From: Algoriphagus yeomjeoni
Lineage (GTDB): Bacteria > Bacteroidota > Bacteroidia > Cytophagales > Cyclobacteriaceae
Direction: 5' to 3'
Length of the DNA: 64,000 nt
NCBI RefSeq assembly: GCF_003259505.1
Contig: NZ_QLLK01000004.1
Span: forward strand, 310,001 to 374,000
In this document: piece after piece, positions 6,098 to 62,639 of the stretch
Layout: the number at the start of each line of letters is the position of its first letter
How positions within the stretch are numbered: the stretch's first letter is position 1
The notes under the pieces: generated by a model
Database searches by the model: none
The model's input: only the letters and a program-made list of their open reading frames with translations
What the model was told of the DNA's origin: nothing
Position numbers and translations under genes: made by a program

Positions 6098-9000
6098 TTA
6101 CATATTTCGGCGATACTGCCCGCCTACTTGGTATAACGCATGTGTAATCTGACCAAGTGAACAATACTTAACTGCCTCCATTAGTTCCTCAAATATATTT
6201 TCATTATTTACAGAAACCCTCTTCAATGCCTCTAGGTGCTTATTCACCAATTCTGGGTTTGCTGAATGAAGTATCTGCAAGGTCTTGATCTGAGCTTCTT
6301 TTTCATACTTTTCTGCTCTGATGACTTCACCTGGAGTTACCGTAGGTGAACCATCAGAAGAAAGGAAGGTATTCACACCGATGATCGGATATTCACCAGT
6401 GTGTTTCAGCATCTCATAATGCATGCTTTCTTCCTGGATTTTCCCACGCTGGTACATAGTTTCCATAGCACCAAGTACTCCTCCACGCTCGGTAATTCTA
6501 TCAAACTCCACATAAACAGCCTCTTCAATTAAGTCTGTCAATTCCTCGATTATGAATGCGCCTTGTATAGGATTTTCGTTCTTTGTAAGCCCCAATTCCT
6601 TATTGATAATCAGCTGAATAGCCATTGCTCTTCGAACTGATGCTTCAGTAGGTGTCGTAATCGCTTCATCGTATGCATTGGTATGCAGAGAGTTGCAATT
6701 ATCATAGATCGCGTACAACGCCTGAAGGGTTGTTCTGATATCATTGAAATCAATTTCCTGGGCATGAAGGGAGCGACCAGAAGTTTGAATATGATATTTC
6801 AGCATCTGGGAGCGTTCATTAGCACCATACTTTAGCTTCATGGCTTTGGCCCAAATCCTACGCGCCACTCTGCCGATTACCGCATATTCTGGATCTATTC
6901 CATTCGAGAAAAAGAAAGAAAGGTTTGGAGCAAATTGATTGATATCCATGCCACGGCTCACGTAATATTCCACGTAAGTAAAGCCATTGGAAAGCGTCAA
7001 CGCCAATTGTGTAATCGGGTTAGCTCCTGCTTCAGCAATATGATATCCGGAAATAGAAACCGAATAGAAATTGCGGATGGAATTTTCTATAAAATACTGC
7101 TGAACATCTCCCATCAATCTAAGAGAAAATTCAGTAGAAAAAATACAGGTATTCTGTGCCTGATCTTCTTTCAAAATGTCAGCTTGTACTGTTCCTCTCA
7201 CTTTCGCAATGGTATCAGCTTTGATCTTTTGATAAACCTCTGCAGGTAACACCTGATCACCTGTGACTCCTAGCAGCATCAATCCTAAGCCATTGTTTCC
7301 CTCCGGAACCTTGGCATTGTATGTAGGTCTTGGAAGGTTTTTAGCTTTATAGATTTGATTGATTTTTTGGTCAATCTCATCTTCTAGTCCATTCGCCTTG
7401 ATATAAACTTCGCATTGTTGATCTATGGCAGCATTCATGAAAAATGCTGTCATGGTAGCCGCAGGACCATTTATAGTCATTGACACAGAGGTCATTGGAT
7501 CTACTAAGTTAAAGCCAGAGTAGAGCTTCTTTGCGTCGTCCAAACAGCAAACACTAACACCTGAATTTCCTATTTTACCATAGATATCGGGACGGTGATC
7601 CGGGTCTTCTCCATACAATGTCACCGAGTCAAAGGCAGTAGAAAGACGCTTAGCGTCTGTATCCTTGGATACATAGTGGAAGCGTTTATTGGTACGCTCT
7701 GGTCCGCCTTCGCCAGCAAACATCCTTGTTGGATCCTCTCCTTCTCTTTTAAATGGAAAAACTCCTGCGGTGTATGGAAACTTACCTGGAACATTTTCCC
7801 GCAATCCCCATTTCAAAATGTCGCCCCAAGCTTCATATTTAGGCAAGGAAACCTTTGGGATTTTGGAGTCAGAAAGTGACATGGAGAAAGTTTTAATCTT
7901 GATCTCCTTATCTCTCACTTTGAAAATATAATAGTCTTCACCGTATTTGGCTGCTTCTGCGGGCCATTCCTCCAACCACTTTTTATTCTTTGGATCAAAT
8001 TCAAGTTCTACCTGCTCGTATACTTCCTGAAGTTCTTTGATCAGACGATCCTTATCCTCCACTTTCGTATTTTCTATGGCTTCAATAGACTTGGTGATGC
8101 TGTAAAGCTGCTGAGCGATCTCCTTTTGCTCCTCCACCCAGACATCGTAGTTTCTATTGATTTCAGAGATTTCAGACAGATATCTAGTTCTCGCAGGAGG
8201 AATAATATAAATCTTCTCAGAGCTACCAGCCGTCAATTCAAAATCACTTTCCATCTCTGGATGACTCTTTGCAATCTTTGAAATAAGCGTACGATACAAC
8301 TGATTCATCCCAGGATCATTGAACTGAGAGGCAATGGTGCCAAAAACCGGCAAGTCCTCATCCTTGGCTTCCCAAAGGTTATGATTTCGTTTAAATTGCT
8401 TCTTCACATCACGAATCGCATCTAAAGCTCCACGCTTATCAAACTTGTTCAGCGCAATCACATCAGCAAAATCAAGCATATCGATCTTCTCTAATTGAGA
8501 TGCTGCGCCGTATTCAGGAGTCATCACATAGAGTGAAAGATCTGAATGCTCAATAATCTCCGTATCAGATTGACCAATTCCAGAAGTCTCCAAAATCACC
8601 ATATCAAACCCAGCAGCTTTCACCGTATCCACCGCATCTTGGACATATCTGGATAGCGCAAGATTTGATTGCCTAGTGGCCAATGAGCGCATATACACAC
8701 GAGGATGATGAATCGCATTCATGCGAATTCTATCACCAAGTAAGGCTCCACCTGTTTTTCGCTTAGATGGGTCAACTGATATGATAGCCAATGTTTTATC
8801 TTCGAAGTCCATAATGAACCTTCGAACTAATTCATCTACCAAAGAAGACTTTCCGGCACCACCGGTTCCTGTGATTCCTAGTACAGGAGTTTTACATTCT
8901 TTACTTTGTTTTCTAACTTTTTCTAGAAGCTGGGTGGAGTTTTCCGGGAAATTTTCGAAAGCCGAAATGGCTCTTGCCACATGCTCTTTACTCTTCACTC

Positions 9001-52169: not shown

Positions 52170-52589
52170 ATGAAGAATCAAGAAAACAAGAGCTACCCAG
52201 GACAAAAATCTGAAGAGCAATATCGCAAGGAGTTAGACGCAGATTCCTATAGAGTTCTTCGGGAAAAGGGAACCGAAAGAGCTTTCACTGGGGAATATTA
52301 CCTGAATAAGGAAACGGGCATTTACGAGTGCAAAGCCTGCGGGAACGAGATTTTTCACTCATCCAATAAGTATGACAGCGGTTGCGGATGGCCAAGTTTC
52401 ACCAAACCGGTGAAACCAGAAGCCATCGATGTACATATGGATTATACCCATGGCATGATCCGTGAGGAGATATTATGTGCCAATTGCGGTTCGCACCTAG
52501 GACACCGATTTCCTGATGGGCCAAGTGACCAAGGAGGAATCAGATATTGTATCAATTCTGTGAGTTTGGATTTTGAGAAAGAGAAATAA
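52170..52589 (+). CDS. msrB: peptide-methionine (R)-S-oxide reductase
   Basis: The 139-residue enzyme has two CxxC zinc pairs (C54/C57 in YECKACGN, C103/C106 in LCANCGSHLGH) and the catalytic C127 in IRYCINS. The motif KYDSGCGWPSFTKP is conserved. It reduces R-methionine sulfoxide in damaged proteins, with thioredoxin as donor. There is no signal peptide, so it works in the cytoplasm. Confidence 0.97.
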   Translation: MKNQENKSYPGQKSEEQYRKELDADSYRVLREKGTERAFTGEYYLNKETGIYECKACGNEIFHSSNKYDSGCGWPSFTKPVKPEAIDVHMDYTHGMIREEILCANCGSHLGHRFPDGPSDQGGIRYCINSVSLDFEKEK

Positions 52590-52629: not shown

Positions 52630-52851
52630 ATGGAAAGAATGTTTAGAATCATCCTTACCCCTGAGTTAGATGGTGGATTTACAGCAATTGTACCTTCCTT
52701 ACCTGGCTGCGTCACGTGGGGCGAAACGCTAGAACATACCAAAGAAATGGCCAAAGAGGCTATCTCTTTATACATTGAGGATATGGAGGCAAACGGGGAT
52801 GAAATCCCTAACGACAACAACAGCCTAGAATTATCCCTTGTAGTTGCTTAG
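52630..52851 (+). CDS. hicB: HicB-family antitoxin-like protein
   Basis: The 73-residue protein is the degenerate RNase H fold of HicB: FRIILTPELDGGFTAIVPSLPGCVTWGETLEHTKEMAKEAISLYIEDME. There is no separate DNA-binding domain, as in many short HicB proteins. HicB binds and blocks HicA, an mRNA-cutting toxin. The hicA gene follows 29 nt downstream but carries a frameshift. HicB may therefore be an orphan. Confidence 0.9.
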   Translation: MERMFRIILTPELDGGFTAIVPSLPGCVTWGETLEHTKEMAKEAISLYIEDMEANGDEIPNDNNSLELSLVVA

Positions 52852-52880
52852 AAACAACTTTTTTAAAATGATCTCTTTTC

Positions 52881-53080
52881 ATGAAACCCATCACTCCAAA
52901 AGAACTGATCAAGATATTAGAATCATTGGGTTTCGAATTTCAGCGTAGTAAGGGAAGTCACCAAGTTTTCAAACACCAAGATGGGCGTAGAACGGTTGTT
53001 CCGCTGCATACAAAGGAGTTGAAACAGGTACATTGATGGCAATTCTAAAACAATCGGGAATATCAAAAGATGAAATCTAA
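52881..53080 (+). pseudogene. hicA: hicA toxin gene with a one-base deletion
   Basis: The frame from ATG 52881 gives KPITPKELIKILESLGFEFQ and the GSHQVF site that carries the catalytic His. It reaches KELKQVH and a stop at 53034-53036, so only 51 residues. If one base were restored at about 53027 (CAGGTACA to CAGGGTACA), the frame would continue as GTLMAILKQSGISKDEI to the stop at 53078-53080, a normal 66-residue HicA. The length 200 is one short of 201. The damage removes the C-terminal part needed for the fold. Confidence 0.85.
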
Positions 53081-53138: not shown

Positions 53139-54287
53139 CTAATCCAACTCCACTTGAACTACAACAAAAGCCATCTCATCATCGATGTTTTCAAAAATCC
53201 AGATGTTGCCATCTTTGGCAAAATGAACATTGGGAGTTTGGGTCAATTCTGGGATCTGGGCTTCGGCTTTTAAATTGAAATCTTTGTCAAAAATACTGAG
53301 ATAAACCTCTGCTCCAGTCGTGACATAGCTATCATATTCATTGAGTTCTTCACTATAATGCTTCTTATCTGAAAATCTGAAATAGCGTTGGTTTTTCTCA
53401 TCCCAAACAAAGCTTCCATAAGAAATTTCCTCTCCAATCTTCCGTTCTACATCTTTTATGCCTCCTGAAGTATATTCCACAGTCTTGGGTGGTACGTATT
53501 CTTTCTCATAACCCAACAGTGGAGTATCCCATTTTTTCACCTGAACACTATCACTTTTGAAATCAAACACTTGAACTTCGTTGAATGCATTCGAACTGAC
53601 CAAAAAGTTCCCATTAGCCTGTAATGGATAAGCTCCAGTTCCGTACCCTCCTGCATCATTTCCATTGTAAAGAATCTTAATATACCGGTCAGAATTTTTA
53701 ACCCAATCAGGGAGCTCAACCTTTTTGTAGGCTCGATCTTTCAAGTCAATATCAAGTATAAAGTCCGTATTAGTTTCCCAATGAGTGACTAAGGCTATAA
53801 ATCGTTCAGGATTGCTTTCATCCTGTTCTAGGGATCGAGCAAAATACTCATTAACCCCGAGGTACTCTTCAACTATTTTTTCCAATTCCAAATCTCTAAC
53901 TAGCTCGCCATTCTGATCAAAAATTTTATAGAATTGGTAGTGCCAGAAAAGCAGGTTTTGGTTTGGCAAAATTGAAAACTGGGGATAATCACCAATTCCA
54001 TTAGGTCCTTCTTTTTCATATTGGATCTTTCTCTCCAATTTGAGATTATTTAGATCAATTTTCTCCGCTGAATTATCCTTTCTATTGAAGTTGAGGAGGT
54101 AGCTTTTGTCCCCAGACAAACTGGAAGTATATAACCGATCCTGTAAATAAAGAAACTCCTGACCTGCATCTATCATCACAGTATCCAGAGAAACTGTAAT
54201 CTCATCTGATACGGACAATTTTTCCTCTTCGGATGAAGCACAGGAACTGGCAAGTAATAAAAGTAAAATCCCGGTAAACAATCTCAT
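53139..54287 (-). CDS. DUF4221-like propeller lipoprotein
   Basis: A short signal peptide ends in LLLASSC with C16 as lipid anchor. The 382 residues then show repeated strands with WxF/Y patterns and the phrases YEKEGPNGIGDYPQFSILPNQNLLFWHYQFYKIFDQNG, split, typical of the DUF4221/6-bladed propeller lipoproteins that are abundant in Cyclobacteriaceae. The function is unknown. It stands alone, between the broken hicA and the acyltransferase operon. Confidence 0.8.
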   Translation of the reverse strand: MRLFTGILLLLLASSCASSEEEKLSVSDEITVSLDTVMIDAGQEFLYLQDRLYTSSLSGDKSYLLNFNRKDNSAEKIDLNNLKLERKIQYEKEGPNGIGDYPQFSILPNQNLLFWHYQFYKIFDQNGELVRDLELEKIVEEYLGVNEYFARSLEQDESNPERFIALVTHWETNTDFILDIDLKDRAYKKVELPDWVKNSDRYIKILYNGNDAGGYGTGAYPLQANGNFLVSSNAFNEVQVFDFKSDSVQVKKWDTPLLGYEKEYVPPKTVEYTSGGIKDVERKIGEEISYGSFVWDEKNQRYFRFSDKKHYSEELNEYDSYVTTGAEVYLSIFDKDFNLKAEAQIPELTQTPNVHFAKDGNIWIFENIDDEMAFVVVQVELD

Positions 54288-57874: not shown

Positions 57875-57878
57875 TAAG

Positions 57879-57952
57879 CGGAATGGACGGGACTCGAACC
57901 CGCGACCTCCTGCGTGACAGGCAGGCATTCTAACCAGCTGAACTACCACTCC
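57879..57952 (-). tRNA. tRNA-Asp (anticodon GTC), copy 1
   Basis: The 74-nt gene folds as a cloverleaf: acceptor GGAGTGG / CCATTCC (one G-T pair), D arm GTTC AGCTGGTTAGAAT, anticodon stem CCTGC / GCAGG around loop CTGTCAC (anticodon GTC), T arm with GGTTCGAGTCC. The 3' CCA is not encoded. Discriminator is G. Confidence 0.97.
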
Positions 57953-58005
57953 AATGGTTTTAATCTAATTATTTTAAAGCAATGATCTTTTTCAGCAACT
58001 TTAAG

Positions 58006-58079
58006 CGGAATGGACGGGACTCGAACCCGCGACCTCCTGCGTGACAGGCAGGCATTCTAACCAGCTGAACTACCACTCC
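58006..58079 (-). tRNA. tRNA-Asp (anticodon GTC), copy 2
   Basis: It is identical over its 74 nt to copy 1, including anticodon GTC and absence of CCA. It is upstream in transcription and separated by 53 nt with no terminator, so both are likely made from one precursor ending at the hairpin at 57851. The region 58085-58289 beyond holds no gene that I can support. Confidence 0.97.
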
Positions 58080-58289: not shown

Positions 58290-61200
58290 TTACACCTCTT
58301 CTTTTTTAATGATTCCCATCAAATATTCTATCTCTGACTCAATCTCTTTAAATCTTCGCTTCACAGATTCTGATTCAAATTCCTCTAAATGCTCCAGTGA
58401 GCTTGCCATTTTTGAAAGCCTAGGCATTCCAGCAGAAACAGCCGTCCCATATAGTTTGTGGCCTGCTTCATTTATCAGGTTTAGGTCTTCCTTTTTAAGT
58501 AAGTCATCCAGAGATTCCAGAGACCCAGTTAACTCAAGCTTCAAGATTTCTATAATATTCTCCAAAATCTGAGGGTCATTGTCAGTGTAACTCATCAACT
58601 TTTCCGGATTGTAGTGAATATCCTCCAGACCATTGGTATTATCCTGAGATAGCTTAATATCCGATTGTGAATCAAGCCATTTATTCAGAACCAACGCAAC
58701 AGTTTCCTCTACCACAGGTTTGACCACGAAATCATCCATTCCAGCCGCCAGACATTTATCACGTTCACCCTTTACATTGCCAGCAGTAAAAGCAATAATA
58801 GGGACATGCTGATCCTTTTCCAACAGTCTAATATTTTTGGTAGCCTCATACCCATTCATAACTGGCATCTGTACATCCATGAGGATTATATCCGGCAACT
58901 GCTTTTGGCAATATTCTACAGCTTCTAGACCATTACTCACTTGCACCAATATGGAATTCGGAGCTATTTTGTTAATGATCGTTTTTGCAAGTAGCATGTT
59001 CACAAGGTTATCTTCCGCTACCAGCACCGTAAATTGTTTCTCAGAACTTTGCGCAATCTCCACTGGGTGCGACTCCTTAAATGACTCTACCGTATAAAGC
59101 CTGGATAATGCCTGATAGAAATCATTAATCTTCAAGGGCTTGATCAAACGATGGTGAATATGAAGTTCTCTACTGCTATCTATAATTCTCTGGTCATCTG
59201 ACGAACTATGAAGTAACATGATCGGCTCATGTCCACTCCAAGATGGAAAACCTTCCCTGATTTTTCGGATTGTCTCCAGTCCATCCATAAACGGCATGTG
59301 ATAATCCATTAGAATCACATCAAACTCCTCACCTGAGGCAAGAATCTGTAAAGCCTCGAACCCATGTGCTGCTTCCTTAGATTTAATATTCTTCAAAAGC
59401 AACATTTGCTTGACTATCAGCCTATTATTCTCGTTATCATCAACGATCAGTACATTCTTTATTTTTTCTACATCAAACCAAGCAATCGCATCTCCTTCCT
59501 CCGTTTTCAATTCAACATCAAAGTAAAATGTACTTCCTTCACCTAGCTTGCTTTCCAAATCAAGTTTACTGTCCATTAATCTGAGTAAACTATTCGATAT
59601 CGTCAGTCCCAGTCCCGTTCCCCCATATTTTTTGGTAGTGGAGCTATCCTCCTGCGAGAATGCCTCGAAAATTTTTGATTGCTTCTCTGCCTTGATTCCA
59701 ATCCCCGTATCTCTAACTGAAAAGCGGATTTTATGCAAATCTCCCTTAACTCCTAAGCTCTCTACTTTCAGTTCTATTTCACCCTTTTCGGTGAATTTGG
59801 ATGCATTTCCCAGGAGGTTCACCAGTATTTGTTTCAAACGAACCGAATCGCCAAAGACAAACCTTGGCAAGTCGTTGGAAATATTCAGCAGCATTTCCAG
59901 ACCCTTACTTTGGATTTGATAGGTAATAATATCCGTGGCCTGGGAGCACATCTCGTACAGATCGCATTTATCTACATCTAATTCCAGACGTCCAGCCTCA
60001 ATTTTTGAAAAATCGAGAATGTCATTTATGATACTCAGCAATGCATTCCCTGATTGGTTTACTATGGACAGGTATTGATGCTGAGTCTCATTGAGACTTG
60101 TTTTTAATACTAAATCTGTAAAGCCGATCACACCATTAAGAGGCGTACGAATTTCATGGCTCATATTTGCAAGAAATTCTGATTTGGCAACACTGGCTTC
60201 CTCAGCCTGTATTTTTGCTTTTTTCAACTCTTGGCGCTGCTTGATACTATTCGTAATATTTTTGGTGAAAAGCATTACACCGCCAATTTCGCTATCATTG
60301 AGATACCAAGGCCTTAATTCCCAGGTGACATATTGTTCTTCTGAAAATCCGGATAGATTTATCAGATCCTCTTCCTTTTTTTCAACTGCGCCTTTTAATA
60401 TACGCTGATGCCTTTCCTTTCTTTCTTGATCTACAAATGAAAAAATATCATAATGTGACTCGCCGATAATCTGCTGATCTTGCAAGCGATAATCCTCTAT
60501 ATAGCGATTGCTGACAGCAATGTATTTCATATTGGTATCAAACATCGCAACAGCCGCTGGAGTATGCTGCACAAATGCTGAAAGGCGACTCTTCTCACTG
60601 ATCAGATCCAGTTCCATTCTTCGCATATCAGTGATATCTGTTGCAAATCCTAAATATCCTATAGTCACATGATCTACACCTTTAATCGGAGTGATTACCA
60701 AGGAAACTGTTCTTCTATCACCGGATTTAGAAATATAGGTCCAATCACGCTGTTCCTTTCCCAGCCTATCAGCCTTCGCATGAAACACTTCCTTTTCATC
60801 TATATCATTTCCAAATTCCTGTCTCAAAGCCAATATATGCTCTTCTAATTCAATCGGGTCATGAAAGAAACTAGGTTTGCGTTTACCAATCATTTCTTCA
60901 GCAGTATAGCCAAGCATTTTTTCCGCCCCTGAATTAAAAACAGAAATAAATCCCGTCATGTCAGTTGCAATTATACTCACCTCAGAAGATGCCTCAAACA
61001 CATCATCAAGCACCTTTCTTGTATGCTCTAGATCTAACTGGGCCCGTTTACTTTCATCTATATCCTGAAACGTCCCGAAAACTCTTACACATTTTTCATC
61101 GATAAATTCCATTTGGCCAATTGCCCGAACCCAAATTTCATTTCCTTTGGCTGTAATAAGCTGTAAATCCTCATCCCATCCTTCCCCGGTCTCTATGCCG

Positions 61201-62639
61201 TGTTGAAGCGCATTGGTAATCGTATTACGACTTTCTCCCTCTTTATAGAAATTAATACCTGTGGTAATGTCAGGGACAAAATCAAACGGAACTTCATGAA
61301 TAATCTTGGTCATTGGACTCCAGTAAACTTCCTGAGAAATCAGGTCAACGTTCCATCCACCGACTCTCGCTACTTTACCTGTCTCTTCTAAAAGTTCTCT
61401 TGTTCGAGTTAAATCTGCCTCCAATTGAACACGCTTAGTAATATCAATAGCATTCCCAATCACATAAACCCCAGCTCCAAAGGGATCATTCTCAATGACG
61501 TTATTGAACATCCAAATCAGCTGAGCCCCCTCTTTATCGAGGGTGATCATTTGACCAGAGGCTTTACCCTCCCTTTCAACAGTTAATAAGTATTGATTTA
61601 TTAATTCATGACGATTTTTTGGTACAATATCATACAAGCTTTTTCCGATTAACTCGCTTGCAGTATATCCTATTTTTCTTGCTCCAGCCTCATTTACTGA
61701 GAGAAATACCCCTTTCAAATCATGTGTACACATCAAGCCTTGAGAGTTTTCAAAAAATGCCCGTAACCTTGCCTCGCTATGAGCTAATTGCTGTTCATTT
61801 GCTTGAGAATCAGTGATATCCCTACCAATACTATAAATATTTCCTGTCTTAGGATCTGGAGTAGACATCCAAGATAATACCTTGTAAGTCCCGTCTTTGC
61901 ATAAAAACCTATTTGAAAATTCTACTGAAGAATCCCCTTTAGTCAATTTCGAAAACTTCCTAATTGACTTTTTAATATCCTTTGGGTGAATCAATTCGAA
62001 AAAGGATCTTTTCAATAAGACTTCATTATCCCAACCCAATAAATGAGTGAATGAAGGATTAATTTTTTTGAAATAACCATCTGTGTTTGCTACACAAATC
62101 AAATCATTAGATAGGTTAAACAATTTCTCCACAGTACTGAATTCAGCAATCAACTGTCGCTCCTGGATAATGATCACTGCCTCACTCACCAATAATTCTA
62201 GTCCTGTTTTGGCTTTCTCATTAAGGGAAATAGGATCACTTCCTACTAGTACCAAGCAGCCTTTGGCTACGCCAAATTCATTAATCAATGGAAGGCAAAC
62301 AAAGAAACCAATACCCTGGGATTGTAATGAGCTCTTGAGCTTTTCAGAAAGTGAAAGTTCATGAACATTAAAAGAAGCAAAAGGTGAATCCAGATGTGAT
62401 GCTTTACTTTTGAAAAAAGTAAGGAGTTCATCATTATGGATACTAATCCCAGTTTCAACTTTGAAACCAACCGCGTCTGTACCTTCAATTAGAATCAGCG
62501 CGTTTTCGGCACCTGACACTACAGCACTCAACTGGCAAACTCGATATAAAGAAATGTCCTGGACAGGATCTAGATTTTGATAGCTATAAACACGTGGTGA
62601 TTCTAACTCTGTTTTTCCGTAGGCGGAACTATTACCCAT
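58290..62639 (-). CDS. large soluble hybrid histidine kinase with GAF, five PAS, two receivers and Hpt
   Basis: The 1449-residue protein has no membrane helix. In order it has a GAF-like domain (about 28-160), PAS domains at about 167-280, 288-405, 412-530, 540-672 and 683-798, HisKA with H828 (ANMSHEIRTP), and HATPase (NLLGNASKFT, DTGIGIK, GGTGLGL). Receiver 1 has D1112 (LMDYHMP), receiver 2 has D1255 (LMDVQMP), and the Hpt domain has H1394 (EAGHKLYGTAVSAG). All parts of a His-Asp-His relay are therefore in one chain. It probably reads cytoplasmic redox, light or small-molecule signals. The output partner is not next to it. Confidence 0.95.
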   Translation of the reverse strand: MGNSSAYGKTELESPRVYSYQNLDPVQDISLYRVCQLSAVVSGAENALILIEGTDAVGFKVETGISIHNDELLTFFKSKASHLDSPFASFNVHELSLSEKLKSSLQSQGIGFFVCLPLINEFGVAKGCLVLVGSDPISLNEKAKTGLELLVSEAVIIIQERQLIAEFSTVEKLFNLSNDLICVANTDGYFKKINPSFTHLLGWDNEVLLKRSFFELIHPKDIKKSIRKFSKLTKGDSSVEFSNRFLCKDGTYKVLSWMSTPDPKTGNIYSIGRDITDSQANEQQLAHSEARLRAFFENSQGLMCTHDLKGVFLSVNEAGARKIGYTASELIGKSLYDIVPKNRHELINQYLLTVEREGKASGQMITLDKEGAQLIWMFNNVIENDPFGAGVYVIGNAIDITKRVQLEADLTRTRELLEETGKVARVGGWNVDLISQEVYWSPMTKIIHEVPFDFVPDITTGINFYKEGESRNTITNALQHGIETGEGWDEDLQLITAKGNEIWVRAIGQMEFIDEKCVRVFGTFQDIDESKRAQLDLEHTRKVLDDVFEASSEVSIIATDMTGFISVFNSGAEKMLGYTAEEMIGKRKPSFFHDPIELEEHILALRQEFGNDIDEKEVFHAKADRLGKEQRDWTYISKSGDRRTVSLVITPIKGVDHVTIGYLGFATDITDMRRMELDLISEKSRLSAFVQHTPAAVAMFDTNMKYIAVSNRYIEDYRLQDQQIIGESHYDIFSFVDQERKERHQRILKGAVEKKEEDLINLSGFSEEQYVTWELRPWYLNDSEIGGVMLFTKNITNSIKQRQELKKAKIQAEEASVAKSEFLANMSHEIRTPLNGVIGFTDLVLKTSLNETQHQYLSIVNQSGNALLSIINDILDFSKIEAGRLELDVDKCDLYEMCSQATDIITYQIQSKGLEMLLNISNDLPRFVFGDSVRLKQILVNLLGNASKFTEKGEIELKVESLGVKGDLHKIRFSVRDTGIGIKAEKQSKIFEAFSQEDSSTTKKYGGTGLGLTISNSLLRLMDSKLDLESKLGEGSTFYFDVELKTEEGDAIAWFDVEKIKNVLIVDDNENNRLIVKQMLLLKNIKSKEAAHGFEALQILASGEEFDVILMDYHMPFMDGLETIRKIREGFPSWSGHEPIMLLHSSSDDQRIIDSSRELHIHHRLIKPLKINDFYQALSRLYTVESFKESHPVEIAQSSEKQFTVLVAEDNLVNMLLAKTIINKIAPNSILVQVSNGLEAVEYCQKQLPDIILMDVQMPVMNGYEATKNIRLLEKDQHVPIIAFTAGNVKGERDKCLAAGMDDFVVKPVVEETVALVLNKWLDSQSDIKLSQDNTNGLEDIHYNPEKLMSYTDNDPQILENIIEILKLELTGSLESLDDLLKKEDLNLINEAGHKLYGTAVSAGMPRLSKMASSLEHLEEFESESVKRRFKEIESEIEYLMGIIKKEEV

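What the first reader, a model, noticed from the sequence alone, without database searches (positions are those of the whole stretch)
52630..53080. Intact hicB next to hicA broken by one missing base
Restoring one G at about 53027 gives a full 66-residue HicA whose C-terminal half is otherwise well kept, so the damage is recent or is a sequencing or assembly error. If real, HicB is an orphan antitoxin. Because the rest is conserved, recoding or phase variation at the GG/GGG site should be considered too.
Basis: seen in the sequence. Interest (0 to 1): 0.55.

Follow-up and report, generated by a model that had tools for sequence, protein, structure and literature searches.

The report
Decaying hicBA toxin-antitoxin gene pair
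A small bacterial self-poison gene has been put out of frame by one lost base while its antidote gene next door is still whole; a sister species has lost even more of the same pair, so this is most likely ordinary recent gene decay, not recoding.

Summary
Confirmed: hicB (52630-52851, 73 aa) is intact, and hicA (52881-53036) is frameshifted, its tail following in another frame to a stop at 53080. The lesion sits in codon 48 (53022-53024), not at the GG near 53027, and removes the last helix of the HicA fold. Five close relatives have an intact pair. The nearest relative with the same flanking genes (G070, Algoriphagus winogradskyi DSM 15360) keeps only a hicB remnant with its own frameshift and has no hicA. 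Of 50 non-overlapping window ORFs compared with G070, hicB is the only one split by a frame change. Substitution patterns suggest hicA was lost after that split; the counts are small. Most likely this is real, recent, toxin-first decay of a chromosomal type II toxin-antitoxin module. A sequencing error cannot be excluded without reads. Recoding and phase variation have no support: a run of three A's, no slippery heptamer, no special RNA fold. The same intergenic slot holds another toxin-antitoxin type in some genus members; 7 of 26 comparable loci hold a module or remnant. Known process, new example.

The parts
52630..52851 (+). hicB, intact, 73 aa; too short to hold a DNA-binding domain (inference from length and match range)
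   Evidence: ORF; PF15919 E 3.7e-11, profile 3-59 of 123; 79% identical to four intact relatives
52881..53036 (+). hicA, frameshifted; open frame of 51 aa, first 47 codons in register with intact HicA
   Evidence: PF07927 E 1.3e-15, profile 2-45 of 58
53022..53024 (+). site of the lesion: codon 48 of hicA lacks one base relative to intact relatives
   Evidence: alignment; (upstream frame kept to 53021, tail frame starts 53024)
53024..53080 (+). out-of-frame tail of hicA (18 codons and stop), which holds the conserved last helix
   Evidence: helix 49-59 in the model of an intact relative
52170..52589 (+). msrB, upstream border of the slot
   Evidence: PF01641 E 1.9e-49
53139..54287 (-). DUF4221 gene, downstream border of the slot (convergent)
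   Evidence: PF13970 E 1.3e-43

Best explanation
This is a chromosomal type II hicBA toxin-antitoxin module in an Algoriphagus-related bacterium that has recently begun to decay, toxin first. A one-base loss in codon 48 of hicA truncates the mRNA-cleaving toxin (function by family, not tested) from the 66 residues of its relatives to 51 and removes its last helix, which should abolish folding or activity (inferred). HicB, left without its target, is still whole, probably because too little time has passed for it to decay (inferred). The sister lineage A. winogradskyi shows a later stage at the same site, probably reached independently: hicA gone, hicB frameshifted and with an excess of nonsynonymous changes.
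For: Same gene neighbourhood in G070 = A. winogradskyi DSM 15360 (L039) with hicA gone and hicB in two frames. Intact hicBA in four MAGs (G061, G063, G065, G067) and in Cognataquiflexum rubidum (L029). pN/pS of the window against four intact relatives is 0.16-0.17 for hicB, 0.18-0.22 for hicA codons 1-47 and 0.13-0.21 for the hicA tail, far below 1. If hicA had drifted freely over 0.3 substitutions per site (about half the hicB synonymous distance of 0.65 to G070), about 26 of 47 residues would have changed; yet the window differs from the more distant Cognataquiflexum in only about 10 of 48 (79% identity). Polarised hicB changes: window 6 synonymous to 1 nonsynonymous, G070 2 to 7, 10 not polarised. 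Of 50 non-overlapping window ORFs of 70 aa or more, 48 match the G070 stretches; 43 as one piece, 4 broken only at the ends of my 20-kb stretches, and hicB alone split by a frame change, G070's own. In reverse, each of the 60 G070 ORFs listed matches the window as one segment. An intact relative is modelled as helix, three strands, helix 49-59 and matches the HicA structures 1whz and 6g26; the model of the window's 51-aa product lacks that helix. Of 30 family loci fetched with a HicA query (window included), 3 have a broken hicA, while the hicB match is free of stops in all 30.
Against: No reads and no second strain of the species were available, so one wrong base in the assembly would look the same. 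Loss of toxicity is inferred. The polarised counts are small and rest on a majority rule over four outgroups. hicA of the window has a somewhat higher pN/pS (0.18-0.22; tail 0.13-0.21) than Cognataquiflexum against the MAGs (0.13-0.17; tail 0.06-0.10), so some relaxation before or since the frameshift cannot be excluded; pairs among the MAGs scatter from 0 to 0.23, and synonymous sites are near saturation in the wider pairs. G070 has no hicA left, so a shared older hicA lesion cannot be ruled out by direct comparison. The 30 family loci are the best of the listed HicA matches, a sample biased toward recognisable hicA.
Confidence: 0.8

Rival explanations
1. Sequencing or assembly error: the real genome has an intact hicA and a working hicBA module.
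For: Both parts of hicA still look constrained (pN/pS 0.13-0.22), as expected of a working gene. The genome is a 30-contig draft.
Against: No frame break in the window's copy of the other ORFs compared with G070. The lesion lies in a run of only three A. The sister species has lost the same module, so the locus is dispensable there.
Confidence: 0.14
2. hicA is made in full by ribosomal frameshifting or transcriptional slippage, or is phase variable.
For: The tail is well kept and ends at the same codon position as in close relatives.
Against: No canonical slippery heptamer in frame (my reading), a three-A run, an RNA fold no better than shuffles (z 0.04). The five intact close relatives need no shift.
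Confidence: 0.03
3. The 51-aa truncated HicA still works as a toxin and HicB still neutralises it.
For: The GSH core with the invariant His27 and the three strands remain.
Against: The last helix, with the nearly invariant T51, I55, K57, A59 and G60, is lost, and the end of the model is of low confidence (block means 65 and 47).
Confidence: 0.03

Closest known systems
HicA (PF07927), e.g. 1whz and 6g26
   Same: An intact close relative matches 1whz (Foldseek E 2.4e-7, TM 0.93) and HicA of the Burkholderia pseudomallei HicAB complex 6g26; by sequence E 1.1e-12 to 1whz.
   Different: The window's copy goes out of frame at codon 48 and lacks the last helix.
HicB antitoxins without a DNA-binding domain (Class 1 HicB of PMC10865869; passages only)
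   Same: 73 aa covering the start of PF15919 (3-59 of 123); solitary hicB genes are already mentioned in that paper (passage).
   Different: Here the partner is still recognisable as a freshly broken hicA.
Decaying chromosomal toxin-antitoxin modules such as ccdO157 of E. coli (reviews PMC2654758 and PMC7167474, passages only; the primary paper by Mine et al. is not held)
   Same: A module in an intergenic slot, lost by deletion or inactivating mutation, with other elements found in such slots.
   Different: Another toxin family (HicA) and another phylum (Bacteroidota).

Membership tests
HicA toxin (PF07927) | Profile match over the domain | tested here: met
   E 1.3e-15, over the cut-off, but only positions 2-45 of 58 in one frame
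HicA toxin (PF07927) | Conserved GSH core with the His | tested here: met
   G25 S26 H27 invariant in the 29 relatives aligned and present in the window
HicA toxin (PF07927) | Complete helix-strand-strand-strand-helix domain in one frame | tested here: not met
   Last helix (49-59 in the intact relative) is out of frame; absent in the model of the window's product
HicB antitoxin (PF15919) | Profile match and intact ORF | tested here: met
   E 3.7e-11; ORF 52630-52851
Functional type II toxin-antitoxin module | Toxicity neutralised by the antitoxin | not testable with these tools
   Needs expression tests
Decaying chromosomal toxin-antitoxin module | Inactivating lesion in the toxin gene, intact homologues elsewhere, loss at the same site in a related genome | tested here: met
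   that the lesion is not an assembly error remains open
Phase-variable or recoded gene | Repeat tract or slippery site with stimulator at the lesion | tested here: not met
   Three-A run, no in-frame heptamer (my reading), fold z 0.04

The most novel reading that the evidence does not exclude
The intergenic slot between the aminotransferase/msrB genes and the DUF4221/acyltransferase genes is a recurrent landing place for unrelated toxin-antitoxin modules in this genus, where the toxin is lost first and the antitoxin (HicB here, a weakly VapB-like protein in G033) is kept for a time by selection as immunity against incoming copies of the same toxin.
Probability: 0.12. Interest if true: 0.45.

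Novelty: new member of a known kind. Interest (0 to 1): 0.2.

Why it matters
It catches a toxin-antitoxin module at an apparently early stage of decay, next to a sister species at a later stage at the same conserved site, in line with the view that chromosomal modules are gained and then lost toxin first. It also removes a possible recoding claim. For annotation, hicA here should be marked as frameshifted and hicB as an orphan antitoxin until reads say otherwise.

Tried and rejected
Recoding and phase variation: looked at the bases around the lesion and the RNA fold; nothing special. Partnership of the orphan HicB with the three other hicAB pairs of the same genome (one on C1, two on C7): protein identities are low (HicB 23-33% to the two C7 HicBs, no real match to the C1 HicB; HicA 30-41% over 29-37 residues), so a shared partner is unlikely. 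Viral origin: no relative of HicB in IMG/VR, by two short peptide patterns only. Plasmid origin: 25 records, all below 60% identity, best 57.7% in a 4.9-kb Marivirga plasmid. The NCBIfam and PADLOC libraries gave no match for hicA or hicB at E 0.01. The first DNA alignment was wrong because two loci lay reversed; it was redone. A promoter and terminator scan found no more than expected by chance.

Full report
What is there. hicB is an intact 73-codon ORF at 52630-52851 that matches PF15919 (E 3.7e-11). Twenty-nine bases on, hicA starts at 52881 and stops after 51 codons at 53036; it matches PF07927 positions 2-45 of 58 (E 1.3e-15). The last 18 codons and the stop follow in another frame at 53024-53080.

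Where it lies. The window is part of contig C4 of a 4.97-Mb, 30-contig genome. Among 72 genomes of the genus, the hicA piece is found in 5 and the hicB protein in 8 at E 1e-3, own genome included; two of the eight (G057, G023) are weak matches of 34-35% identity. Four of the others (G061, G063, G065, G067; 74-78% complete; MAGs by the contig lengths) have an intact pair without the window's flanking genes in the stretches fetched. Cognataquiflexum rubidum (L029) has an intact pair as well.

The sister species. G070 has the window's neighbourhood (aminotransferase, msrB, hic, DUF4221, acyltransferase). There hicB is split into two frames (residues 1-22 and 22-59), and its end and hicA are missing.

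Timing. Against four intact relatives (Cognataquiflexum, G061, G063, G065; G067 was not included), pN/pS of the window is 0.16-0.17 for hicB, 0.18-0.22 for hicA codons 1-47 and 0.13-0.21 for the tail; Cognataquiflexum against the three MAGs gives 0.14-0.17, 0.13-0.17 and 0.06-0.10, and pairs among the MAGs scatter from 0 to 0.23. So hicA of the window is clearly constrained over most of its history, with a slightly raised ratio that could be chance or some relaxation. Synonymous sites are near saturation in the wider pairs. hicB of window and G070 differ with dS about 0.65; the neighbours give 0.81 to 1.68. Had hicA drifted freely over 0.3 substitutions per site, about 26 of 47 residues would have changed and a stop would appear in about 79% of runs; the window's hicA piece is 79% identical to Cognataquiflexum's. 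Polarised hicB changes are 6 synonymous and 1 nonsynonymous in the window, 2 and 7 in G070, 10 not polarised. I infer that the window's hicA was lost after the split from G070, independently; the counts are small, and G070 has no hicA left for a direct test.

Error or real. I compared 50 non-overlapping window ORFs of 70 aa or more (58.6 kb) with five G070 stretches: 43 match as one piece, 2 have no match, 4 break at the ends of my stretches, and hicB is the only one with a frame split, which is G070's own. The hicA ORF is below that length limit. In reverse, the 60 G070 ORFs listed (matches above 60% identity, some of them antisense ORFs) each match the window as one segment. A lone assembly error in exactly this module is possible but less likely than decay.

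What the lesion does. AlphaFold2 on the intact Cognataquiflexum HicA gives helix, three strands, helix 49-59 (mean pLDDT 93.7), matching 1whz and 6g26. The model of the window's 51-aa product keeps the first helix and three strands and has no last helix (mean pLDDT 84.3). Loss of toxicity is inferred.

How general. A HicA query in the family matched 50 of 390 genomes; loci of the 30 best matches were fetched (window included). The hicB match is free of stops in all 30, though weak or partial in several. hicA is broken in 3: the window, G358 (in-frame TAG, one-contig genome) and G309 (frame change at a run of eight A; same sequence as L032, Marivirga sp. LH_M32). flags a stop in 9 of these 30 matches; I judged seven of them (L084, L085, L088, L090, L092, L095, L099) to be the gene's own end, since their open frames are 62-76 aa. 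L033, found through HicB, has an in-frame stop in hicA too. The rate is only indicative.

The slot. I examined 42 loci of the genus around the acyltransferase gene (22, 20; 67 of 72 genomes have that gene). In 26 of the 42 the aminotransferase or msrB lies on the expected side and strand within the stretch. Of these 26, 2 hold hicBA or its remnant (window, G070), 4 hold a small protein followed by a PemK/MazF-type toxin (G021, G003, G043, G052; PF02452 in the two tested, G003 and G021), and 1 holds the small protein alone (G033). That small protein is only weakly VapB-like (E 0.0017-0.0071, below the cut-off). In the other 19 these queries found neither type at E 1e-6; some hold other genes there, such as a 511-aa ORF in G006, G007 and G039 that reads like a transporter to me (not searched).

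Literature. Decay of chromosomal modules and the use of their intergenic sites by other elements are described in reviews (passages of PMC2654758, and PMC7167474), and solitary hicB genes in PMC10865869 (passages). A search for HicA, HicB, Bacteroidetes and Algoriphagus (three of four terms) listed 6 papers, none of which holds the word Algoriphagus (listing only). Three further searches were seen as listings. The finding is a new example of a known process.

Noticed in passing
L073 (G358:C1:3207578-3207772): An otherwise well kept hicA with an in-frame TAG next to an open hicB in a one-contig genome of the same family.
   Followed up: partly
L032 4181-4480 and L083: Marivirga sp. LH_M32: hicA with a frame change at a run of eight A beside an intact hicB; unlike the window, this tract could be prone to slippage.
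   Followed up: no
L152 about 6219-6446 (G033): A weakly VapB-like antitoxin alone in the same slot; the PemK-type toxin that follows it in other species is missing.
   Followed up: partly
L065 / L139 (G003): The DUF4221 gene next to the slot matches in two overlapping pieces in G003 (residues 1-95 and 85-381), as if frame-split.
   Followed up: no
L137 (G021): Three tandem DUF4221 genes beside the slot, 82%, 65% and 49% identical to the window's copy.
   Followed up: no
window 58290-62639: A 1449-aa ORF that reads like a hybrid sensor kinase is only 67-69% identical to its G070 counterpart, while most neighbours are 85-99%.
   Followed up: no
window 57878-58079: Two tRNA-Asp (gtc) genes close together on the minus strand.
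   Followed up: no
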